Positions 1-11,371 of a stretch of DNA of 11,371 nucleotides are shown here, in pieces (the first letter of the stretch is position 1; every line of letters begins with the position of its first letter). Under the pieces are notes generated by a model that did not search any database, was not told the DNA's origin, and worked only from the letters and a program-made list of their open reading frames with translations. This DNA is from an uncultured beta proteobacterium. GTDB taxonomy: Bacteria; Pseudomonadota; Gammaproteobacteria; Burkholderiales; Burkholderiaceae_C. The stretch covers positions 1 through 11,371 of the forward strand of contig CAIXMC010000050.1 of assembly GCA_903920405.1 (NCBI GenBank), in the 5' to 3' direction. The position numbers and the translations under genes are program-made.

Positions 1-20
1 CTGCTATCAAACGTCAAGGG

Positions 21-28
21 GGGATCTA
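21..28. repeat. Target site duplication, left copy
   Basis: GGGATCTA lies directly before the left terminal repeat and is identical to the copy at 124-131. The preceding G is also shared with the last base of the element, so a 9-bp reading is possible, but 8 bp keeps the C...G symmetry of the ends. Confidence 0.85.
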
Positions 29-123
29 CAGGGTGAATTGGTTCTCTTGAAATCCTCCTACGAAGAACACAAATATATTGCCACGCCACTCGCTTTGAAA
101 ACAGGGAGAACAAATTCACCCTG
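29..123. mobile_element. 95-bp MITE with 18-bp terminal inverted repeats
   Basis: The left end (29-46) reads CAGGGTGAATTGGTTCTC. The reverse complement of the right end (106-123) reads CAGGGTGAATTTGTTCTC, so 17 of 18 positions match. The element is flanked on both sides by the 8-bp direct repeat GGGATCTA. It is too short to carry a transposase and must have been moved in trans. From memory, ends starting CAGGG with 8-bp target duplications fit the ISAs1 (H-repeat) family. That assignment is an inference and no ISAs1 transposase is visible in this window. The element is open in frame 2, so a misleading reading frame runs through it into the OmpA domain. Confidence 0.85.
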
Positions 124-131
124 GGGATCTA
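124..131. repeat. Target site duplication, right copy
   Basis: GGGATCTA follows the right terminal repeat directly and is identical to 21-28. Removing one copy together with the element restores the OmpA-domain reading frame. Confidence 0.85.
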
Positions 132-403
132 AACGGTTACGGTATGACAACACAAATCTTGCGTTGGACAGAGCAAGAGCAGTTCATGCGGCATTGGTGT
201 CAGGTACTGCGTTGGCGGAGTATCGCAACGTTCTCAATCAACCTTTGTTTTCATTCAGTTCTTATGCCGACACCCGACCACTTCCCCAAATGGAGGCCTC
301 TGACGCAAGAAATCGACGTGTTGATTTAAAGATAGTATTAACTTATCGACCTCTTGAGGTTTATGCGCCTTCTCTTGGAATTAAGCTGCACTGAATTTGA
401 ACC

Positions 404-1808
404 ATGATGTTGAACCTGGCTTTTCCATTGTTACCCCTTGAACTACCACATTTGTCTGTCGTATTAAAAAATATGGGCGGTGAAGCTGTTCATGTTCCGT
501 CAGATTATTTATCGCTAGGCGACCGTCTGAGACAAAAAATAATTGCAGGCAGGGCATCGAATTACGACAATCTAACGCGATCAGATTATAAAAATTTACC
601 TTATTCATTTTTTGTCAAGGGTTATGTTCCACTTGAAAAATCAGACCCTGTTGTGGTTCATCATTATTGGTCAAAACTTCTGCCAAGCGTAGCCGAAAAG
701 ACACCCAACAAGGTTAACCGATGGTTATCTATTTTGTTTTTTATTTACTGTGATCGTTTTGATCCCGATGATGTCAGTTTTACGGAGTATGCCCATCAAT
801 TTTTTGAGTTTTCTCAAGCCTACGCGCCCGATTTTGTAAGAGTGTGGCGACGTGCTCATTACAAATATGCCTTCTTCAATGTATCCCAGGCGCCTTCATG
901 CCTGGCACATGACTGGTTGACTACACCGTATGCAGGTATTCAAACATGGCTGGATTCAAAAAAACTCTGGACAGGTTTTTTTTTCAACTCAGTTAATGGC
1001 ACATGCACTGGTTCGACTCTACGATGGTTCTCTGGGTCGTCTAGATGCTGAGCCGTTGGTTAGAAAGTTGATGGTTTGGGTTGAGCAATTCACGACCAGC
1101 CCGGATAAAACAGTGCATCGCATCCCATTTGCCAATGCCGTGCTTTTGCCTTGGCATAATGTCAGTGCGCCAGCCCCAGTTAAAAAAATGCTCATGGATT
1201 GGTTTCTTTGCCACTATGGCGACCCACGCATTCCACAAAAAAATGTTTACCAATGGCAAGGTGTTGATGGGCTTGCAGTGGAGGTCATGCTGGCCTGGTT
1301 GGCGGGCGAAACAGTCAAGGCTTTTGTCCAGATTCTTGAAAAAACGGCTGATGTCACCTGGCGCTACCGGCAAAAATTCTGGATGGCCTATATTGATGCC
1401 AATCATGTGGATGATGCCTGGCTGGCCTTGGGTGATGATGCCTTGCGAGAAGTCAAAATCAATTTGATTCAAAATTATCGACTGGGTTATGGTTCACTGG
1501 ATGGCGCACAAAAAAACCAGTCCGTGCTGATTATAAAAATAAAAAATTTGATTTTTACAGAATGGAGTCATTCTGGCAGTCTGCGTGCTTGCAATATTAA
1601 TAACATCAATGCACCCAAATTGCGTCTTATGCACTACGATGCCGACTTATTGCGCAACATTATTTCACTTGATTTTCATGATGGCGCCAATGAAAATCCA
1701 GAATTACGCCACCATCACCCTGGACGTGGCACCTGGCAAATAAAAGCACGCGATTTTATTCGTCATCATGCAGGTATTTATCTTAGGGATCAAGACATAC
1801 TTCTTTGA
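404..1808 (+). pseudogene. EH-signature (ZorC-like) protein gene, frameshifted at T9
   Basis: Two overlapping reading frames form one protein. The first runs from ATG 404 to about 984; the second continues to the TGA at 1806-1808. They join at the nine-T run at 976-984. With eight T's the reading is WTGFFSTQLMAHALVRLYDG and the product would be 467 residues, slightly shorter than the ZorC in this window (569). The C-terminal part has the EH-signature layout: a Glu in IFTEWSHSGSLRAC (about residue 386 of the repaired protein) and a His cluster RHHHPGRGTW about 50 residues later, ahead of an Arg/Asp-rich helix. ZorC family proteins are DNA-binding effectors of Zorya defence. It follows the OmpA-like gene by 9 nt, matching zorB-zorC order. 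It is more AT-rich than the intact zorC and only distantly similar, so it is not a recent duplicate. No zorD-like gene follows. Sequencing error or transcriptional slippage at the T run cannot be excluded. Confidence 0.75.
976..984 (+). other. T9 run, site of the frameshift in the EH-signature gene
   Basis: Nine consecutive T's mark the point where the coding frame changes. One T fewer restores a single reading frame of 467 codons plus stop. Runs of this length are prone to replication slippage, transcriptional slippage and base-calling error. Confidence 0.8.
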
Positions 1809-2200: not shown

Positions 2201-2839
2201 CTAGGGCTGTGTAGCGGCTTGTTTTAACCCCTCCGCCGTCGCTTTTGCACCATGCAGACGCAGAGCGGCCACCAGTTCTGCTAATGTGTACGGCGGTTTT
2301 TTCAGGTCATTGAGCGACTTTGCAATCGCCTGACAGGTTCTTGCTGGCGCTGCGTCAAACAGGCTGTCCAAGAACGCACCGGCTTTGATGACCTCGACAC
2401 CAAGTTTGCGGGTGTCAGCGACCGCCAGATGTTTGGTGTTGTCGGAAACGATCACTACCTTGTGCAGTGCCGGGTTATCTTCCTCATCGATTCCGTTCAC
2501 CATGACCAAGGCGGCGGCGATCAGGTGGCGGTCGTTTTCAGGCACCCGAGCGGGGACTCGGGACATGAATGCCGTATCGTCATACCCCGTAATCAGATGC
2601 CCATTGCTGGTGGCCCGTTGAAACGCCTTGAGCCGTTTGTCACCTGACTTCGATGCGTTGGGATGCACCTGTGGCCAGTTGCGCAGGAACTCAGCCTCAA
2701 CATCAGCCGTCCAGTAAGCAAAGTAAAGACCATGCAGCATCAAGTCAAACAGGACATCCGACAAGCGCGATGGCAGCAGCACGCAGGTGTCCAAAATAAC
2801 CAGGGTGTTGCCACCGGGGGAGAGTGGGTGGCGGTCCAT
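2201..2839 (-). CDS. PIN-domain ribonuclease, probable toxin
   Basis: The 212-residue protein carries the acidic residues expected of a PIN nuclease: Asp17 in LVILDTCVLLPSRL, Glu48/Glu50 in TADVEAEFLRNW, Asp103 in PENDRHLIAAAL and Asp133 in VVIVSDNTKHL. PIN toxins cleave RNA using metal ions held by these acids. At 212 residues it is longer than classic VapC toxins (about 130), with a C-terminal extension after residue 140. It lies 9 nt downstream of a helix-turn-helix gene on the same strand, the order expected for antitoxin then toxin. I chose ATG at 2837-2839; a TTG directly before it (2840-2842) is an alternative. The PIN call is firm. The toxin role is inferred from the pairing. Confidence 0.85.
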   Translation of the reverse strand: MDRHPLSPGGNTLVILDTCVLLPSRLSDVLFDLMLHGLYFAYWTADVEAEFLRNWPQVHPNASKSGDKRLKAFQRATSNGHLITGYDDTAFMSRVPARVPENDRHLIAAALVMVNGIDEEDNPALHKVVIVSDNTKHLAVADTRKLGVEVIKAGAFLDSLFDAAPARTCQAIAKSLNDLKKPPYTLAELVAALRLHGAKATAEGLKQAATQP

Positions 2840-2848
2840 CAATGAAAG

Positions 2849-3367
2849 TCACCGACTTTTTGCAAGTGCCTTGACCCGCCGCATCACATCCGCTTCAGTG
2901 CTTTTATAGGCACCGGCCGTTTCACCTTCCGTGCGTAGGTCAGTGGCTTTGCCGGTCACCTGATGCTTGGCTTTCCAGTCCAGCACTGCGGCACGGGATA
3001 CCCGCCTATGGCCACCAGCCGAGACAGTTGCACCCGCAAGCTTGTTCTGGTCGATCAACATGGCGACGTAGGGGCGGCTATACCCTAGCAATTCGGCGGC
3101 CTGGGCTGTGCTGATCAGGTCAGTGGCCGAATCAACCGCTTTCGGCATCTCAATACCCACTGTCTGGCTCTCAATATCAACCAGGTGGCGGATCAATTGC
3201 AGACGGGCGTTGCGGCTTTGTGGTGTGGTGGCCTCCAGAACCTGATGGAGTGCGTTGGCGACCTGATCAGACATGGCTCCAGTCATCGAACCGATAGCAT
3301 CCGCCAATGGTCCGAGTGGGTCGTGGCGGTGTGTTAATGTTTTACCCAGCGTGGTGGCGGTAGACAT
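2849..3367 (-). CDS. Excisionase/MerR-type helix-turn-helix protein, probable antitoxin
   Basis: The 172-residue protein has an excisionase-like DNA-binding domain at about residues 86-135: STAQAAELLGYSRPYVAMLI followed by GGHRRVSRAAVLDW, the pattern of a helix-turn-helix plus wing. The N-terminal 80 residues look helical and could serve in dimerisation. The tail from about 140 is charged and probably flexible, which is where such antitoxins often bind the toxin. The start is well supported: a GGAGGT ribosome-binding site (complement of 3372-3377) lies 4 nt before ATG 3367. The PIN gene follows by 9 nt. An antitoxin of this type would normally repress its own promoter, and three 9-bp tandem repeats lie just upstream at 3408-3434. 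The antitoxin function is inferred from context. Confidence 0.8.
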   Translation of the reverse strand: MSTATTLGKTLTHRHDPLGPLADAIGSMTGAMSDQVANALHQVLEATTPQSRNARLQLIRHLVDIESQTVGIEMPKAVDSATDLISTAQAAELLGYSRPYVAMLIDQNKLAGATVSAGGHRRVSRAAVLDWKAKHQVTGKATDLRTEGETAGAYKSTEADVMRRVKALAKSR

Positions 3368-3399: not shown

Positions 3400-3437
3400 A
3401 GTATAAAACGAAAACAACGAATAATACGAAAATTATA
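3400..3437 (-). promoter_or_regulatory. Candidate promoter and operator of the helix-turn-helix/PIN operon
   Basis: Three head-to-tail 9-bp units, ACGAAAACA (3408-3416), ACGAATAAT (3417-3425) and ACGAAAATT (3426-3434), sit 41-67 nt upstream of the antitoxin start. On the minus strand a TATACT (complement of 3400-3405) makes a possible -10 box, and a TATAAT (complement of 3432-3437) is an alternative. No good -35 box is seen at 17 nt from either. The regular spacing suggests binding sites for the helix-turn-helix protein. This is inference from position and repeat structure. Confidence 0.45.
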
Positions 3438-3467
3438 ATGCCTGCAAATGCACAGGTAGTGACTGCC

Positions 3468-3764
3468 TCAAGCACCATCCTGTAGGTGAGCTATTTTTGA
3501 ATCAGAGGCTTGCAATGGAATGCAAGATTGCAATCTTGCAATTGAAAAGGGCCAACGCCCAACATTTGTTTGCCATTTCCGGGTCTCATCAATAAAACCC
3601 TCACTTGTCACTCTGTCTGAATCTGTCCAGACTTTCAGGTCACGCCCTCCAAACGCCAACCACGCGCTGTCTCTCCACTTTTTTGCATTGTGACCGCGCC
3701 AAGTCAGCATCCAATCCGGTGTCTTTTGCACTTGGAAACGGGCATAAAAAAAGGATGAAATCAC
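3468..3764 (-). CDS. Hypothetical 98-residue open reading frame, doubtful
   Basis: A minus-strand frame of 98 codons starts at 3764. The protein is rich in Trp, Arg and Lys (for example WMLTWRGHNAKKWRDSAW) and shows no domain I recognise. It has no evident signal peptide or membrane segment. A perfect 20-bp palindrome (3521-3540) lies inside its 3' part, and no neighbour supports a role. It may be a spurious frame or the remnant of a gene. It is listed because it is the longest open frame in an otherwise empty stretch. Confidence 0.15.
   Translation of the reverse strand: MISSFFYARFQVQKTPDWMLTWRGHNAKKWRDSAWLAFGGRDLKVWTDSDRVTSEGFIDETRKWQTNVGRWPFSIARLQSCIPLQASDSKIAHLQDGA
3521..3540. repeat. 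Perfect 20-bp palindrome
   Basis: TGCAAGATTGCAATCTTGCA equals its own reverse complement. A further TTGCAA occurs just before it at 3510-3515, and the palindrome itself ends in CTTGCA followed by A, so the local sequence is built from repeated TTGCAA half-sites. It could be a protein-binding site or a recombination site. There is no U-run after it, so it does not look like a terminator. Confidence 0.6.
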
Positions 3765-3871: not shown

Positions 3872-3970
3872 TTTCGGCATGACCTCCTGGCAGTGAATGC
3901 TTCTGTTCGTAGCACAATGCAGTCTGACACAACAATAGCATTGCGATGCTCCTTTGATAACCCATTCATT

Positions 3971-3990
3971 CCAACAGGCAGCACTGTTGG
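3971..3990. repeat. Inverted repeat, 7-bp stem
   Basis: CCAACAG (3971-3977) pairs with CTGTTGG (3984-3990) around the loop GCAGCA. It lies 44 nt before the start of the Sel1-like gene and has no T-run. It could sit in the mRNA leader or be an operator. Confidence 0.4.
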
Positions 3991-4033
3991 CCGTTGGTTG
4001 GCGCACCTTGGATTCACTCTATCGGACATCAAG

Positions 4034-4702
4034 ATGACTGATTTTTGCCTGGCTACTTCTGAAGACGGCGTTCGTTTCAAACTCAAGAACGATGGCACTT
4101 GGGTGCCTGATGTTGAGATTCAATCTCAGCCTGTAAATACCCAGAATATGGTTGAAGGTAAGCGTTTATTTGATTTGGCAGAAGAATATACCGATGGCAG
4201 TATAAATGTGATTAAAGATGAAAAAAGAGCATTTCAGTTATATAAACAGTCGGCAGAATTAGGCTATATAATGGCATTTTGCAGATTAGCATTTTGTTAC
4301 CGTTTAGGATTAGGCGTTAAAAAAGACTTGAATACAGCTCTTTTATGGGCAAAAAAAGCCATAAAGTCTGGAGAAATATTTGGATATTGGTCGGCTGTAC
4401 TATGTTTTCTTGATGCATCTATGGCAAACGAAGCCAGAGCAATGTTTAATGAATGTTTTTGCGAATATGAAAATGAATTTCTTTGCGATAACCAGAACAC
4501 CAGAAGTATATTGTCTTTGTTTGCAAGATGCGTTATAAATAATGAGATTCCTATAGACAATATTCCTTCATACATTCATTTAGTGATGCAAAGATTTTTA
4601 AGTGATCTAAATAGTCGGAAAAACCCATTGTCAGAATTAGAAGAAGGCCGTCTCGAATACATTCAAAAATTTGTTCCTATGCATCAAAATGGTTTAATCT
4701 AG
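4034..4702 (+). CDS. Sel1-like repeat protein with a SEDGVRF/GTW N-terminal module
   Basis: The 222-residue protein starts with a short module (residues 1-26) containing SEDGVRFKLKNDGTWVPD. One full and one partial Sel1-like (TPR-type) repeat follow at about residues 62-120: DEKRAFQLYKQSAELGY and then LGLGVKKDLNTALLWAKKAI. Sel1 repeats usually bind other proteins. The C-terminal 100 residues are helical-looking and unassigned. The frame stays open upstream to ATG 3893, but I chose ATG 4034 because the module then lies at the very N-terminus, as in the next gene. No strong ribosome-binding site is seen. The body is AT-rich while the module is not, suggesting a chimeric origin. There is no signal peptide, so it is probably cytoplasmic. 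The function is unknown. The gene ends 54 nt before the next gene and lies upstream of zorA on the same strand. Confidence 0.7.
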   Translation: MTDFCLATSEDGVRFKLKNDGTWVPDVEIQSQPVNTQNMVEGKRLFDLAEEYTDGSINVIKDEKRAFQLYKQSAELGYIMAFCRLAFCYRLGLGVKKDLNTALLWAKKAIKSGEIFGYWSAVLCFLDASMANEARAMFNECFCEYENEFLCDNQNTRSILSLFARCVINNEIPIDNIPSYIHLVMQRFLSDLNSRKNPLSELEEGRLEYIQKFVPMHQNGLI

Positions 4703-5427: not shown

Positions 5428-7605
5428 ATGCCCCCCGAACTAACCGCCCTGGCCACTCCAATCCTGCACTGGTCTGTTGGCACCTTGCTGGCGTTTTCGG
5501 TGCTGGCATTTGTCGGGCAATTCCTGCTGCCCGGCATTCGCATAGGCCGCCAACTTAAAAAAGCCAATCAAAAACTCATGGCACTGAAAGCTGCCGGGCC
5601 TGTGCTTGATCTTGACCGTGTTCGCAGCGAAGTGATGGTCAGTGTCGATCTGCGTCATGCCTGGGACGAGTACCGCGACACGCTGCATGGTCAAAAGCAG
5701 GTGACTGCGGCCGGCGTGTTGGAGGTTTGCCGCTGGCGCGCCACATCCATGGCCAGTGGCTTTTTTACGGAGCAGGCCTTGATTGCCGTGCCGCTTCGCA
5801 CCGAGTTTTACAAGCATTTGCCTGGCATTTTGACCGGGCTGGGCATTATTGGCACTTTCTCTGGGTTGATCATTGGGTTACAGGGTTTCAAGGTGACGGA
5901 CGATGCGCAAGTGGTGCGTCGCAGTCTGGAGACGCTGATAGTGAGCGTGGGGGGTGCGTTTGTCGTGTCGGGCGCGGCGATTGCGTTGGCCATTTTGGTG
6001 ACAGCGATTGAGAAATTTACGGTGAACCGGCGCTACGCTGATCTGGAAACATTGTGCAGCGTACTGGACAGTCTGTTTGACACCGGTGCAGGTGAAGAGT
6101 ATTTGCAGCGGCTGGTTGAAGCCTCCGAGACCTCGGCCACGCAAACCATGCAGATGAAAGAATCTTTGGTGACTGACCTCAAACAGGTCCTCACGGAACT
6201 GACGCATCAGCAAATTGCCACCATGACCACCACCAGCTCCCATTTGGGGCAGGTCATTTCCACCAGTTTGACCGAGGGGCTGACGGAGCCGCTGGCGCGT
6301 ATTTCGGACGCGGTTCAGGCGGTGGGGCACAGCCAGGGTGAAGCGGTCAATAAACTATTGACCGATGTGTTGGGCGGATTTACCGCACAGATGGACAGCA
6401 TGTTTGGCTCGCAAATGCGTGGCGTGAACGAGATGCTGGTGCAAACGGCCAACACCATCGCATCGGCATCTGTGCGCTTTGAACAATTGGCAGGCCAGAT
6501 GCAGCAAGCCGGCACGGGGGCTGCCGATGCCATGGCGCAACGCATGGACGAGGCTGTGCAGCAGGTGCTTTTGCGCCAGTCTGAAGCCAACGACCAGATG
6601 CGTCTTTTCATGGATCAACTCACAACCTCGGTGGCCAACAGCCAGAGCGAATCTGCCGAATTGACCCTGGGCATGATGAAGGAGTTGGGCGAAAGCACCA
6701 GTGCCTTGATTCAAAGCCTGCAAGACCAGGCGCACAACGCGCAGCAATCCCACAGCGCACATCAAAACGAGCGCGATGCGCAAATGCGATCGCTCTTGGA
6801 ACAGTTGCAGTTGAACATGGCCAAAAGCCAGGGCGAATCTGCCAGTGCAACTGCCCGGTTGTTTGACCAGCTTGGTGAGACAACAGGCCATTGGGTGCAA
6901 GACCTGCAAGAGCAAGCCAACCATGCCCAGGAAGAGCATACCGAACGTCAAATAGAACTGGCTGCCCGAACAGCAGAATTGCTCCAGGGTCAAAGCGCTC
7001 AAGTAAGTCAGTTGAGTGCCGTGGTGCAACAAGCCAGCGTGGCCATGCGTGAAGCCATTGAGCGTTTGCAAACCAGCACCCACAGCAACATCGAGCGCAT
7101 GGGGCTGGGCGCAGAGCGCTTGCATGATGCATCCAGCCATCTGAGCGACAACCTGGGTGCCATGAAGTCAGCGAGCGATGGTTTGGGAAACATGGCAGGC
7201 CAACTCAATGTATCTGCCAGCACTTTGAGCAGTGCGCTGGTGGCCACCCAGCAGTCTTTGGGTGACCATGGGGCAGTTCGGGATGCACTGGCCGCCATGG
7301 TGACGGACTTGCGCAGTACCGTTGAAAACGCAAAACGCGAAGCCTCCCTGACCGTCGATCTGGTCAATAGCCTGCAAGTTGCCAGCCAACGTCTGACAGA
7401 GGCCCAGCGTGCGGCGGATACCTACCTTCAAGGTGTGACCGAGGTGCTGGGCGAAGCGCATGGCGCGTTTGCCAGGCAAATGGAAATCACTTTGCGAGAT
7501 GGCAACCGCGTTTTCCATGAAGAATTGGCACAGGCCACCGGTTTGCTCAAAGGTGCCATCCAGGACTTGGGTGAGGTGCTTGACAACCTGCCGTCGGCAG
7601 CTTGA
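5428..7605 (+). CDS. zorA: ZorA, MotA-like motor protein of type I Zorya
   Basis: ZorA is the inner-membrane stator-like subunit of Zorya. Five copies surround a ZorB dimer and carry a long cytoplasmic tail that is thought to pass the signal of phage attack to the effectors. The 725-residue protein fits the family. A membrane segment lies at about 8-37. MotA-like segments lie at about 131-154 (LPGILTGLGIIGTFSGLIIG) and 170-197 (LIVSVGGAFVVSGAAIALAI). From about 198 to the end it is Gln/Glu/Ala-rich and helical, about 530 residues of probable coiled coil. Two tandem 62-residue units occur at residues 390-451 and 452-513. An in-frame TAA at 5419-5421 leaves ATG 5428 as the first possible start. 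I see no ribosome-binding site, so coupling to the upstream gene is possible. zorB starts 2 nt after the stop. Confidence 0.92.
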   Translation: MPPELTALATPILHWSVGTLLAFSVLAFVGQFLLPGIRIGRQLKKANQKLMALKAAGPVLDLDRVRSEVMVSVDLRHAWDEYRDTLHGQKQVTAAGVLEVCRWRATSMASGFFTEQALIAVPLRTEFYKHLPGILTGLGIIGTFSGLIIGLQGFKVTDDAQVVRRSLETLIVSVGGAFVVSGAAIALAILVTAIEKFTVNRRYADLETLCSVLDSLFDTGAGEEYLQRLVEASETSATQTMQMKESLVTDLKQVLTELTHQQIATMTTTSSHLGQVISTSLTEGLTEPLARISDAVQAVGHSQGEAVNKLLTDVLGGFTAQMDSMFGSQMRGVNEMLVQTANTIASASVRFEQLAGQMQQAGTGAADAMAQRMDEAVQQVLLRQSEANDQMRLFMDQLTTSVANSQSESAELTLGMMKELGESTSALIQSLQDQAHNAQQSHSAHQNERDAQMRSLLEQLQLNMAKSQGESASATARLFDQLGETTGHWVQDLQEQANHAQEEHTERQIELAARTAELLQGQSAQVSQLSAVVQQASVAMREAIERLQTSTHSNIERMGLGAERLHDASSHLSDNLGAMKSASDGLGNMAGQLNVSASTLSSALVATQQSLGDHGAVRDALAAMVTDLRSTVENAKREASLTVDLVNSLQVASQRLTEAQRAADTYLQGVTEVLGEAHGAFARQMEITLRDGNRVFHEELAQATGLLKGAIQDLGEVLDNLPSAA
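6595..6966 (+). repeat. Tandem 186-bp (62-residue) duplication in the ZorA tail
   Basis: The unit beginning QMRLFMDQL at 6595 is repeated at 6781 as QMRSLLEQL, 186 bp later. Matching landmarks include ANSQSESA/AKSQGESA, KELGEST/DQLGETT, IQSLQDQAHNAQ/VQDLQEQANHAQ and the closing ERDA/ELAA. The copies are divergent but clearly aligned without gaps. A weaker trace of a third copy may follow (ARTAELLQGQ). Confidence 0.75.
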
Positions 7606-7607
7606 AC

Positions 7608-8375
7608 ATGTTTGGTGGTGTACGCACTTCACGTTCACAACGCAGCCGCGAAGAAGGGGAAAAGCCTTTCTGGATTTCGTTTTCTGACCTGATGTCGGCG
7701 CTGATGGTGCTGTTTTTGGTCGCACTGACCGTGGCGCTGCTGGCAGTCACCAAAAAGGTCTCGGAAGACGAACGCGAAGACAGGGAACGTCTGGCGGCCA
7801 TTACGGTTTTAATGAACGAGATCAAACAGGTGGTGTCTGCCAAAGAGTTTGAAGGTGTGCGCGTCATTGGCAACACCATTGACTTTGGCCCGCGGGGGCG
7901 CTTTGAGCGTGAAGGGCAAAACACATTGTCTTTACCGCAACGGCAAGTGCTTCGCCAGTTCACTCCCCGTTTGTTGGATCGTCTGCGGGTAACCGATGCG
8001 GGCAAATACTGGTTCAAACGTGCCGTGGTCGAAGGGTACGCCAGCCAGAGCGGCAAATACCTGTTCAACCTGAACCTGAGCCTGGAGCGCAGTGAACGGG
8101 TGCTGTGCGAACTGTTGCGCGAGCCTGTCAATGGAGAACTCCCACTGCCAGAGGCCGACCGTGAACTGATTGCCACACGGTTTTTTGTGGGTGGCGCATC
8201 GTTTAACTCGTTGCGTTCTACCGCTGATGACAGCCGGCGCATTGAGTTCAAACTGGAATTCAAAAGCCGCCAGGAACGCCATGACGAACGTCTTCAAACC
8301 CCACCCGTGGCAGATGCTGATGCCCTGGCGCAGGCACTTGACCCCAAAGAGCGATGCCCCATTTTGAACCGTTAG
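7608..8375 (+). CDS. zorB: ZorB, MotB-like protein with OmpA domain, type I Zorya
   Basis: ZorB is the inner subunit of the Zorya motor, anchored to peptidoglycan by its OmpA-like domain. The 255-residue product has a short cytoplasmic N-terminus, then one membrane helix starting FWISFSDLMSALMVLFLVAL. Asp27 in this segment matches the ion-carrying Asp of MotB and the essential Asp of E. coli ZorB. The OmpA-like domain fills the second half, with NLNLSLERSERV at about 151-162 and the closing DDSRRIEFKLEF at about 205-216. I chose ATG 7608; a TTG at 7602 would overlap the zorA stop and add two residues. The 3' end overlaps zorC by 22 nt, suggesting translational coupling. The same family is seen, disrupted, at 1-394. 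Confidence 0.93.
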   Translation: MFGGVRTSRSQRSREEGEKPFWISFSDLMSALMVLFLVALTVALLAVTKKVSEDEREDRERLAAITVLMNEIKQVVSAKEFEGVRVIGNTIDFGPRGRFEREGQNTLSLPQRQVLRQFTPRLLDRLRVTDAGKYWFKRAVVEGYASQSGKYLFNLNLSLERSERVLCELLREPVNGELPLPEADRELIATRFFVGGASFNSLRSTADDSRRIEFKLEFKSRQERHDERLQTPPVADADALAQALDPKERCPILNR

Positions 8376-10063
8376 ACGCGCTGCGCGCCAAACTCTCTGC
8401 TGCATTGAGCCATCGGCAGGTGTCTGCCGCGTCAGCCTGGGGCAACCCGGGGATGATGACCGAAGTTCTTCGCACCATCCAACGCGATTTTGAGGGTACC
8501 GATGGCAAGCCACCCACGCAAGACGTGCTGGCCAAGGCGCTGAACCACTTTACCCAAACCCAAGAGGTGGCCAATTTCACGGAACTCAAATACGTTTGCT
8601 ATGGCGTGACGGTACCCGTGGGAAAAGCGCAGCAACGCGTGATGGACAGCGCGCCATTATTCGATGGGCTGCTCTTGTTGGTGCAGCAACAAGAAACAAG
8701 ACAGAAACAGTTTCGTCGCTGTTACCAGGGCCTGCTGCATGGCTATTTTGAATTGGATCGGCATACCGAGGGTGTGGCGGGCGCGCATTGGCATCGTCTG
8801 GGTACTTTTTTGAACCACAAACTCCAGCCTGTTCTGGATGCTGTATCGCAGCGAGGCCATACACCCGACTGGCTTCAAACGCTGAACCATCACCGAAATT
8901 TACTTACCGATGACCCGTGCAGCCGGTATGCCAAACGCCTGGCACAAGGCGATTTTGTGGAACTGAAAACAGTCTGCACCGGGCTGGGCATTGCGGGATC
9001 GTCCTGGGTGTGGCATGACGCGCTGATGGCTTATGTTCAGTGGGTTTGCGCGTGTGATGATGACACTTTCCTGAGGGCATTGCCCCGTGTTTTGCAATTG
9101 CTCAATGGTCAGGCCGACCTGAAACTCCCGCCCATGTTGTCCACACAGGCCACTGCGCTCACAGTGGTACGGTACTCGCGTTGCGCCAGCAAACCAGAAC
9201 ATACCGAGTTGCGCGATACCTGTCTGCACTGGATTGGCAACCCGTGGCTCAAACGCACCGATTGGGATGCCACTGTCAAACATGAACCTGCACGTCAGAT
9301 GGTGGACAGTTGGTTGAAACGCCGCTTGATCAGGGACTTTTTTGAACTGCTGGCGCAAGACGGTGCCGCTGACCTGCGCCGACTGAACTTCTGGCTCAAA
9401 TGGGAGTCCAGCATCACCGACATGTGGTTTGTGCTGGGTTCTGATGCACGGTTTAACCAAAGTGCTGCCTTCATCGATTTGCGCAAACGCATGGAGGGCA
9501 ACCTGCGAATTCTGAATGACAACCACGCGCAAAACAACGCCTTTGTCATGCGCATCCATCAACTGCTGGTGATTGAATTTGGGGTAACAGGCAACGCCTG
9601 CTTTGTTTTTGCAGCCGCAGACTTTCATACCAGCCTGGCACAAAAAACCTTCAGCATCCACGAACTCAAACAAAAAACACCTGCACCGGTCGCACGCTTG
9701 TCGCATCAATCGCATTGGGAGTGGAAATTTGACGATGAACTGCGCAAACTGCTTTGCAACGTACCCCTGTCAAAGTCTGCCTTGTACGATCAATCTGCAC
9801 CATCGCCCCAGCCTGCACAAACGGTATTTCGCAGCCGTCTGCCCACACCTGCCATCCCCAAAACGCCGTCCATTGACTTGGATGCCATTTGGCATTTGTG
9901 CAAACAAAACAATATCCAATGGGAAGACAACCGCCCCAAGCAAGGCGCTTTGTGGGTGTTGATTCCCGACAGAAACAAACGCCCAGGTCTTGCCGCTTTG
10001 CTTGACCGTGGCGGGTTTCGTTATGCGCATGGCAAAGGGTTTTGGCTTAAAGACGAGAATTGA
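8354..10063 (+). CDS. zorC: ZorC, EH-signature DNA-binding protein of type I Zorya
   Basis: ZorC is a cytoplasmic Zorya protein that binds DNA and is needed for defence. The 569-residue product has the family's usual length. The N-terminal 350 residues are helical and unassigned. The EH-signature domain shows Glu408 in LLVIEFGVTGNACFVF and His451 in RLSHQSHWEWKFDDEL. Their 43-residue spacing equals that which I remember for the essential Glu400 and His443 of E. coli ZorC. After a Pro/Ser-rich linker at about 475-505, a small C-terminal domain (about 508-569) ends in GGFRYAHGKGFWLKDEN. The start at ATG 8354 lies inside zorB and has AAAGAG just upstream. zorD begins 3 nt after the stop. Confidence 0.9.
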   Translation: MPHFEPLDALRAKLSAALSHRQVSAASAWGNPGMMTEVLRTIQRDFEGTDGKPPTQDVLAKALNHFTQTQEVANFTELKYVCYGVTVPVGKAQQRVMDSAPLFDGLLLLVQQQETRQKQFRRCYQGLLHGYFELDRHTEGVAGAHWHRLGTFLNHKLQPVLDAVSQRGHTPDWLQTLNHHRNLLTDDPCSRYAKRLAQGDFVELKTVCTGLGIAGSSWVWHDALMAYVQWVCACDDDTFLRALPRVLQLLNGQADLKLPPMLSTQATALTVVRYSRCASKPEHTELRDTCLHWIGNPWLKRTDWDATVKHEPARQMVDSWLKRRLIRDFFELLAQDGAADLRRLNFWLKWESSITDMWFVLGSDARFNQSAAFIDLRKRMEGNLRILNDNHAQNNAFVMRIHQLLVIEFGVTGNACFVFAAADFHTSLAQKTFSIHELKQKTPAPVARLSHQSHWEWKFDDELRKLLCNVPLSKSALYDQSAPSPQPAQTVFRSRLPTPAIPKTPSIDLDAIWHLCKQNNIQWEDNRPKQGALWVLIPDRNKRPGLAALLDRGGFRYAHGKGFWLKDEN

Positions 10064-10066
10064 TAA

Positions 10067-11371
10067 ATGTTTGATACGCTTTTTGGAAAAAACAAAGTAT
10101 CGGCAGCAGCGCAAAGCGTGCTTACACCTGTGAGTTACAACTCCGAAGGCATTCACTACCACTTGCCTGCCGATGCCAAAACACAGTGGCTGCAAGCACC
10201 CTCTGAAGCAAACGATGCAGCAGACCTTCACGCCAGGCTGAACCAGATTTTTCTGGAGGGTTTTGGTGATTGGCGCAAAGCCGAATTTGTATTGCCCTGG
10301 CGCGATGTTTACGCTTTGTTACAGCACCCCGAACTGGCGAACTACCGAGAAGCCTTGCTGATACCCCCGACATCACAGGCACGCCCTCGGCTGACCAGCA
10401 GGGGCGCGTTGATGGATGCAGACTTTTCTGTGATGCTGGATGAGTGGGTTGATCCGCAAGGCCGTCGCTTGCAGCCTGTTCCCAAGCTACAAGGCTGTGT
10501 GCTGACGGTGGATGGCACTTGTGCGCTGTTGCCTGAACCCCTGCACCGGCTGCTCGATGAGTTGAGCCGCTTTCACGCCTGTGCGCCAGAGCAGCGCACG
10601 CAGTCTTTCAAGGAACAGTCGTTTGGTCGTATGCGCACCTTGGCCAAACGCAGCGCTTGCCCCGTGTCTGACTATGTGGCGCGCACGGTGGTGCTCACGC
10701 CTGAGCGTCTGCGTCTGTCTTTGGAGCGTCGCGGTGAGGGCGAGGGTTCACTGTTGGAGGTCATCCCGGGCTTTGACGAAGCACCCGCTGGCTGGTTGAG
10801 CCAGTTTGACCGCTTGCCATTGCAAGACAGCTACGATGTGCCAGACGGGCCAGCCCTGGTGCGTGTTGTCATCAGCCCCGAAGTGCGAGCCGTTTTGGCC
10901 GAGATCAAGCACATGCCCGCACGGCGTGCCTACGGGCCACGAGCGCAGGCTTTTGCGCGCAACCCGTTTGGTGTGCTGGGCGAAGCTGCACATGGGGTGG
11001 TTGATGCCGACCAGTTTGAACAGGCGTGTGCCGACGCAGGCATTTCTTTTGAGCGATTCACGCCACAGGTGCAGCGTGGCGAAATGGGTGAAGTGTTGCG
11101 TGTTGGTTTGCTGATTGAAGCCCCTGGCAATTTGTTGCAGGAAGCGCAGACGCTGTGGTTTACCGATACCGCCGAACTGCTGCGGTTCACCGACAAACTG
11201 GGGCGCTGTCTGACTGACGAATCGCAATGTATTCAATGGCTTGGACATGAGTTGGATATGGAGGGTGATACCCACACACATCTGGAAGAACTGCAATCGT
11301 GGTGGCGTGAGTGGGCCAGCCCCAGCCTGTGGACGGCGGCTGAGGTGCTGGACTTGCGCCATTACGCAGCA
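10067..11371 (+). CDS. zorD: ZorD, N-terminal 435 residues (cut by window end)
   Basis: The frame from ATG 10067 is open to the last base (435 codons). By position after zorC this is ZorD, the SNF2-type DNA translocase and nuclease of type I Zorya, usually about 1,080 residues. The visible part corresponds to the N-terminal region, which in the known protein precedes and regulates the helicase core. No Walker A or DEAH-type motif is present yet, as expected. The segment begins MFDTLFGKNK and has no signal peptide or membrane helix, so it is cytoplasmic. The start follows the zorC stop by 3 nt (TGA TAA ATG), with only a weak upstream ribosome-binding site, so translation is probably coupled. 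The assignment rests mainly on gene order, because the catalytic part lies outside the window. Base composition matches zorA-C. Confidence 0.8.
   Translation, partial: MFDTLFGKNKVSAAAQSVLTPVSYNSEGIHYHLPADAKTQWLQAPSEANDAADLHARLNQIFLEGFGDWRKAEFVLPWRDVYALLQHPELANYREALLIPPTSQARPRLTSRGALMDADFSVMLDEWVDPQGRRLQPVPKLQGCVLTVDGTCALLPEPLHRLLDELSRFHACAPEQRTQSFKEQSFGRMRTLAKRSACPVSDYVARTVVLTPERLRLSLERRGEGEGSLLEVIPGFDEAPAGWLSQFDRLPLQDSYDVPDGPALVRVVISPEVRAVLAEIKHMPARRAYGPRAQAFARNPFGVLGEAAHGVVDADQFEQACADAGISFERFTPQVQRGEMGEVLRVGLLIEAPGNLLQEAQTLWFTDTAELLRFTDKLGRCLTDESQCIQWLGHELDMEGDTHTHLEELQSWWREWASPSLWTAAEVLDLRHYAA

What the first reader, a model, noticed from the sequence alone, without database searches (positions are those of the whole stretch)
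21..131. A 95-bp MITE with intact target duplication inactivates an OmpA/ZorB-like gene
The sequence shows 18-bp terminal inverted repeats (17/18 match) at 29-46 and 106-123, flanked by the exact 8-bp duplication GGGATCTA. Excising 103 bp reconnects two frames of an OmpA domain. Without excision the upstream frame stops at 34-36, inside the repeat. The near-perfect ends suggest a fairly recent insertion. The CAGGG ends and 8-bp duplication suggest mobilisation by an ISAs1-family transposase. A gene caller would report a false small gene starting inside the element.
Basis: partly seen in the sequence, partly recalled or inferred. Interest (0 to 1): 0.75.

Follow-up and report, generated by a model that had tools for sequence, protein, structure and literature searches.

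The report
Nested mobile repeats inside broken zorB
The 95-base hitchhiker DNA element is real and belongs to a repeat family spread through this bacterium, but it sits inside another mobile element, and that outer element, not the small one, cut an anti-phage defence gene in two; the case is tidy but of an ordinary kind.

Summary
The element is real. At 29-123 lies a 95-bp MITE ("A") with 17/18-bp terminal inverted repeats and an exact 8-bp target duplication. Loci fetched from the host genome hold 22 complete A-type elements (94, 95, 128 or 245 bp); where a duplication is readable it is mostly 10 bp.

124-141 is the 18-bp end of a second, genome-wide repeat family ("B", 6-bp duplications), and A is inserted inside a B element. 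zorB resumes at 142. Contig C442 of the same genome carries the 5' part of zorB, then GTATGA, then the other end of B; the window resumes after B with GTATGA. All 119 ZorB homologues compared match both pieces; in 118 they meet with an overlap of 0-2 residues. So B (at least about 178 bp, length unknown) broke zorB, and A lies within B. Removing 103 bp would not rejoin zorB.

A second Zorya operon, open to the contig end, lies downstream. A's CAGGG ends and 10-bp duplications fit an ISAs1-type source, but no ISAs1 domain was found in the host and no IS with A's ends in the searches made. New members of a known kind.

The parts
1..141 (.). right end of outer element B, interrupted by A (29-123) and A's second target copy; B-derived bases are 1-28 and 132-141
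   Evidence: 124-141 equals the 18-bp terminus of the B family; the contig starts 141 bp before the B/zorB junction; C442 ends 140 bp inside the other end of B
124..141 (-). 18-bp terminal sequence of element B (CGTAACCGTTTAGATCCC on the minus strand), outer edge at 141
   Evidence: 26+26 matches of its 17-bp core (up to 2 mismatches) in own genome, control 0+1
29..123 (.). 95-bp MITE A
   Evidence: identical copy at C47:4086-4180, 93% copy at C169:3963-4057
29..46 (+). left terminal inverted repeat of A
106..123 (-). right terminal inverted repeat of A
21..28 (.). target duplication of A, left copy GGGATCTA
124..131 (.). target duplication of A, right copy GGGATCTA
142..147 (.). target duplication of B, right copy GTATGA (left copy is C442:5879-5884)
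142..394 (+). 3' part of zorB (OmpA-like domain), cut off from its start
   Evidence: PADLOC ZorB PDLC00610 positions 159-238 (that alignment starts about nine residues inside the repeat); 119 of 119 homologues match the piece that starts at 143
404..1808 (+). zorC of the same broken operon, split in two overlapping frames (404-1051 and 930-1808); a T9 run lies at 976-984
   Evidence: PADLOC ZorC, ORFs, sequence
5428..11371 (+). second Zorya operon: zorA 5428-7605, zorB 7602-8375, zorC 8354-10063, zorD from 10067 to the contig end
   Evidence: PADLOC; NCBIfam, mostly below its curated cut-offs

Best explanation
Two insertions, one inside the other. Element B (ends YGTAACCGTTTAGAYCC, 6-bp duplications) inserted into the OmpA-like domain of a Zorya zorB gene, duplicating GTATGA; the zorB frame runs three more codons into B and stops. 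The 95-bp non-autonomous element A (ends CAGGGTGAATTKGTTCTC) inserted into B, 18 bp from B's right edge, duplicating GGGATCTA. A made no further difference to zorB. Shown: both families, both duplications, the split of zorB between contigs C442 and C50. Inferred: the time order (A either entered B after B was in zorB, or came along inside B), that both elements are moved by transposases supplied in trans, that A's source is an ISAs1-type IS, and that the operon is dead.
For: The core of 124-141 matches B family ends, 26+26 in own genome with control 0+1, and 9 of 18 B pairs scored have exact 6-bp duplications. The two zorB pieces cover ZorB profile PDLC00610 at 6-162 (C442) and 159-238 (window). 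All 119 homologues compared (of 218 found, 120 listed, one being the truncated protein itself; lengths 225-274) match both pieces: one shared residue in 99, two in 16, none in 3, and a four-residue excess in 1. GTATGA lies on both sides. The contigs stop 140 and 141 bp inside the repeat, as an assembler would break there. The truncated ZorB is a cluster of 3 sequences on 7 contigs, the longest 8160 bp, longer than C442. The closest homologue is uninterrupted at this point (P0002).
Against: No contig held here spans C442-B-C50; adjacency rests on gene continuity and duplication. Among 52 B end flanks the 6-bp partner test also gave three other pairs between different places, some surely chance. 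The interior and full length of B are unknown, and no transposase for A or B was found. C47 also carries the B end with A inside, next to a different flank, so a rearrangement or assembly fault at this repeat is possible.
Confidence: 0.92

Rival explanations
1. One reading: A inserted directly in zorB and is the sole cause of its inactivation; removing 103 bp restores the frame.
For: The TIRs and 8-bp duplication are exact, and frame 1 of 1-28 holds no stop before A.
Against: The 1-28 peptide gave no match to the 119 homologues; 124-141 is a repeat terminus found at many other sites; the 5' half of zorB is on C442 and ends in another element's terminus at exactly the codon where the window resumes.
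Confidence: 0.02
2. Contig C50 is chimeric: the A-in-B end belongs only to the C47 locus and was joined to zorB in error.
For: C47 shares 117 identical bases (window 25-141) and then has another flank.
Against: GTATGA on both sides of the zorB break fits a genuine B insertion here, and C442 independently shows a B end at the same zorB codon. Even so, only the presence of A in this B copy would be wrong; B would still be what broke zorB.
Confidence: 0.06
3. A is mobilised by a transposase unrelated to ISAs1, for example the ISKra4-type elements of the same genome.
For: The end of an ISKra4-type transposase gene lies about 45 bp from an A terminus at C247 (relatives of that gene reach the NCBIfam ISKra4 cut-off in 2 of 4 tested); no PF13808 domain in the MAG.
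Against: After the gene, CGCACCC is kept in both own copies and six of seven relatives shown, and the sequences then diverge, so that is probably the IS edge and in C247 the IS has landed beside or in an A element. Some PF13808 loci of the order have CAGGG ends, two with 10-bp duplications, like A.
Confidence: 0.3

Closest known systems
Bacterial MITEs (review PMC10969869, passages seen)
   Same: Short, near-perfect TIRs, exact target duplications, many copies; elements inserting into one another are described there
   Different: I found no name for either family, but ISfinder and Repbase could not be searched here; A and B subfamilies with unrelated ends carry the same inverted palindrome GTCATTCCCGCGAAGGCGGGAAT (the window's own A copy does not)
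ISAs1-family insertion sequences
   Same: CAGGG outer ends; exact 10-bp duplications in loci L194 and L220
   Different: Inner TIR differs (CAGGGCAATCGCATGAAT in those loci against CAGGGTGAATTKGTTCTC); no PF13808 domain found in the host MAG
Zorya anti-phage systems (PMC11890865, passages seen)
   Same: ZorA, ZorB, ZorC homologues around the break; the paper reports that mutations in ZorB's peptidoglycan-binding domain abolish anti-phage activity
   Different: In the broken operon the helicase next to zorA matches DrmD far better than ZorD
Transposon conglomerates in Aeromonas salmonicida (PMC5756416, passages seen)
   Same: Elements targeting each other, and reciprocal target duplications between copies
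   Different: There named transposons in a finished genome; here short elements and one longer one of unknown length in a fragmented MAG

Membership tests
MITE (element A) | short length with near-perfect terminal inverted repeats | tested here: met
   95 bp, 17/18
MITE (element A) | target-site duplication | tested here: met
   8 bp exact here; 11 of 21 A copies with both flanks readable have 8-10 bp, ten have none by the exact rule
MITE (element A) | multiple dispersed copies | tested here: met
   22 complete A elements in loci fetched from own genome, one of them (C47) cut short by a contig end in its flank
MITE (element A) | shares ends with an autonomous element that can move it | tested here: inconclusive
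   none found in own genome, 59 relatives, 369 class genomes (host included), or two collections; a longer element with a related end exists (C129 and congener G020, 82% over 143 bp) but no transposase was recognised in it
ISAs1-derived | CAGGG outer ends and 10-bp duplications as in PF13808 loci of the order | tested here: met
   6 of 30 PF13808 loci gave CAGGG-bounded inverted pairs, 2 of these with exact 10-bp duplications; the scan looked only for CAGGG, so the other 24 say nothing about their ends. A has 10 bp in 9 of 21
ISAs1-derived | ISAs1-type transposase in the genome | tested here: not met
   PF13808 absent from own MAG, which is 89.8% complete and broken at repeats; so A is not filed as ISAs1-derived
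MITE (element B in zorB) | short non-coding element | tested here: inconclusive
   B here exceeds about 178 bp, longer than the 88-157 bp B copies that carry 6-bp duplications; interior not assembled
Zorya ZorB (interrupted gene) | MotB-like N-terminus plus OmpA-like domain, adjacent to zorA and zorC | tested here: met
   PADLOC ZorA, ZorB and ZorC hits on C442 and window. NCBIfam ZorB1 gives only 20 bits (cut-off 400) for the N-part and nothing for the C-part; Pfam MotB_plug below cut-off for the N-part, nothing for the C-part, OmpA just below cut-off for homologue P0002

The most novel reading that the evidence does not exclude
The nested pair B-with-A moves as one unit through B's outer 18-bp ends, which A left intact: the same A-in-B junction, identical over 117 bp, lies beside two different flanks (window and C47). 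Small elements would then act as cargo of other elements, and the genome's A and B bursts would be linked.
Probability: 0.35. Interest if true: 0.42.

Novelty: new member of a known kind. Interest (0 to 1): 0.3.

Why it matters
It corrects a cause: the visible small element is not what broke the defence gene. It also shows how a contig that starts inside a repeat can make a nested element look like a simple gene interruption. The host carries two families of short elements with different ends, both nearly missing from the 35 congeners searched, and one insertion lies in a phage-defence operon that has a second, apparently intact relative next door. That makes a small case for following the decay of redundant defence systems.

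Tried and rejected
The lone A ends at C129, C247, C85 and C332 were considered as ends of the autonomous IS. At C247 an ISKra4-type element lies beside or in an A element. The C129 end is 82% identical over 143 bp to a locus in congener G020 with the related end CACGGTAAATTTGTTCTC, and shares its first 41 bp with the C247 end at 95%, but no transposase was recognised there; C85 and C332 were not followed further. The only ISKra4 gene that the family search found in the host, on C75, has no A ends near it and one weak B-like match.

The exact 18-bp A end in its GG form gave 7 single hits in genome contigs, and the form with any base at that place 1 in viral contigs, none with a partner end; the tools state that the host's own records may be left out there. 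L176 (a Nitrospirae MAG, hit 122 bp from its contig end) could be an IS end and was not resolved. Two 1.1-kb weak pairs in relatives (L137, L138) lie over ordinary genes and share no similarity.

B ends in viral contigs gave 9 single hits without partners. A plasmid search for A gave one 22-bp match, for B's left end 8 records with short weak matches. A translated 30-residue stretch at B's left end found nothing in plasmids, so the identity of B stays open.

Rfam: 0 families in the window at the gathering threshold. Paper search for MITE, ISAs1 and target site duplication together: 0 papers.

Full report
Observation. The window is the whole of contig C50 (11,371 bp) of a 458-contig assembly of 2.68 Mb. 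The inverted repeats at 29-46 and 106-123 match at 17 of 18 positions and are flanked by GGGATCTA at 21-28 and 124-131. The end pattern with up to two mismatches occurs 35 times forward and 35 times reverse in the host genome; the control pattern occurs 0 times. The 95-bp element occurs in full three times: here, at C47 (identical) and at C169 (93%). I call the family A.

Family A in the host. Among loci fetched from the host genome a script found 22 complete A elements of 94, 95, 128 or 245 bp. One (C47) has a flank cut by a contig end. Of the 21 others, 9 have exact 10-bp duplications, one 9 bp, one (the window copy) 8 bp and ten none by the exact-match rule. The 8-bp case might be a 10-bp duplication that lost two bases in its G run; this is inference. 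The 128-bp subfamily holds the palindrome GTCATTCCCGCGAAGGCGGGAAT once on each strand, and so does a 143-bp B element; the window copy of A does not hold it.

The flank is another repeat. A search with window 1-200 showed that 123-141 occurs elsewhere in the genome without A. The sequence GGATCTAAACGGTTACG with up to two mismatches has 26+26 matches in the host, control 0+1, and forms inverted pairs: family B, outer end YGTAACCGTTTAGACCC. Of 18 B pairs that the script scored, some of them nested or spanning two elements, 9 have exact 6-bp duplications and 9 none. In the window the outer edge of such an end is at 141, so A lies inside a B element, 18 bp from B's edge, and the 1-28 stretch is read as B interior. 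That last point follows from position; 1-28 itself was not found whole in any other B copy (one search shows only partial, weak matches to parts of it, apart from its last four bases in C47).

The other half of zorB. C442 ends 140 bp inside a B element with the same terminus; just before it stands GTATGA (C442:5879-5884), and the window continues after B with GTATGA at 142-147. C442 encodes a helicase, a ZorA homologue and the first 165 codons of a ZorB homologue up to the break. The ZorB profile PDLC00610 is covered at 6-162 by the C442 piece and at 159-238 by the window frame; the latter alignment starts about nine residues inside the repeat, so the small overlap is not exact. A protein search with the C442 piece gave 218 proteins, 120 listed; P0001 is the truncated protein itself (169 residues, 3 member sequences, 7 contigs). 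Against the other 119, 225-274 residues long, both pieces match in all 119 and meet with one shared residue in 99, two in 16, none in 3 and a four-residue excess in 1. The one shared residue is what the duplicated GTATGA predicts. The nine-residue frame-1 peptide of 1-28 gave no match at the cut-off used.

Conclusion on cause. B broke zorB; A lies in B. Whether A entered B before or after B reached zorB is not known; the shared junction at C47 would allow either. The statement that a gene caller may report a small gene is fair: an ORF with TTG start at 38 runs to 394.

What B is here. B's left 140 bp (C442) and its right 38 bp without A and without the second target copy (window 1-28 and 132-141) do not overlap (best ungapped match of 1-28 in the left end is 14 of 28). 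So this B is longer than about 178 bp, while B copies with clean 6-bp duplications are 88-157 bp. It may be a full IS whose interior was not assembled or binned; its left end recurs in the MAG only as a 94-base match at C151. Its transposase family is unknown.

Second copy of the nested junction. C47 carries window 25-141 without a mismatch and then a different flank. Either B-with-A moved or recombined as a unit after A inserted, or the assembly is faulty there. This is the basis of the novel case.

Source of A. PF13808, the ISAs1-associated domain, was not found in the host; the MAG is 89.8% complete. It was found in 26 of 399 genomes of the order, 19 over the curated cut-off. Of 30 loci examined, 6 have CAGGG-bounded inverted pairs with at least 14 of 20 matches, and 2 of these (L194, L220) have exact 10-bp duplications; the scan looked for CAGGG only. 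This supports ISAs1 as a class of source by CAGGG and duplication length only; beyond CAGGG the ends differ. Among 60 genomes (35 congeners, 24 others of the order, the host) 40 have some match to A's end with up to two mismatches. Of the 29 relative loci that were fetched (not every hit was), only L130 (congener G013) holds a short A-like pair, 93 bp with the related end CAGGGTAAATTTGTTCTC; two 1.1-kb weak pairs are over ordinary genes. Congener G020 has a longer stretch 82% identical over 143 bp to the A-type end at host C129. B ends with up to one mismatch were found in 2 of the 59 other genomes, once each. Exact CAGGGTGAATTNGTTC was found in 4 of 369 genomes of the class including the host; the three others have one hit each and no partner.

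Surroundings. The broken operon continues with a zorC in two overlapping frames with a T9 run in the overlap. The helicase upstream of zorA matches DrmD (439 bits, cut-off 950) far better than ZorD (33 bits). From 5428 a second operon zorA-zorB-zorC-zorD runs open to the contig end. [quoted passage not shown] the insertion lies in that domain, so loss of function is the likely result, not tested.

Literature seen: passages of PMC11890865, PMC10969869, PMC3281130 and PMC5756416 and search listings. Elements inserted into one another are described in two of these, so nesting as such is not new.

Noticed in passing
G000:C180:6254-6381 and C138:10296-10423; also C439/C234, C44/C332 and C371/C69: For 8 of 66 distinct A end flanks the 10-bp partner lies at another copy (four pairs; C371/C69 is between two contig ends, C180/C138 between two complete copies). 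This hints at exchange between copies or assembly breaks.
   Followed up: partly
G000:C243:255-499: A 245-bp A element that contains a third inverted-repeat element (ends CAGCMTGTCGGACTTGA, apparent CTAG duplication); similar starts are seen in the B copy on C9 and the A copies on C422 and, cut by the contig end, C92.
   Followed up: no
G000:C8 about 3410-3613: A B element inserted in the end of another B element, with duplication TCTAAA.
   Followed up: no
window 404-1808: zorC of the broken operon is split by a frameshift, with a T9 run (976-984) in the overlap; real mutation, slippage or error not decided.
   Followed up: partly
window 2201-3367, minus strand: PIN-domain-like gene (weak, below cut-off) next to an excisionase-type HTH gene, between the two Zorya operons; toxin-antitoxin-like layout.
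   Followed up: no
L116 (C442) 105-2435: DrmD-like helicase directly upstream of a ZorA-ZorB set (zorC follows in the window), in place of ZorD.
   Followed up: partly
L130 (congener G013) 1501-1593: 93-bp A-like element with identical 18-bp ends and a related palindrome ATTCCCGCCTGCGCGGGAAT.
   Followed up: partly
window 3893-4702: Sel1-repeat protein gene between the two defence operons.
   Followed up: no
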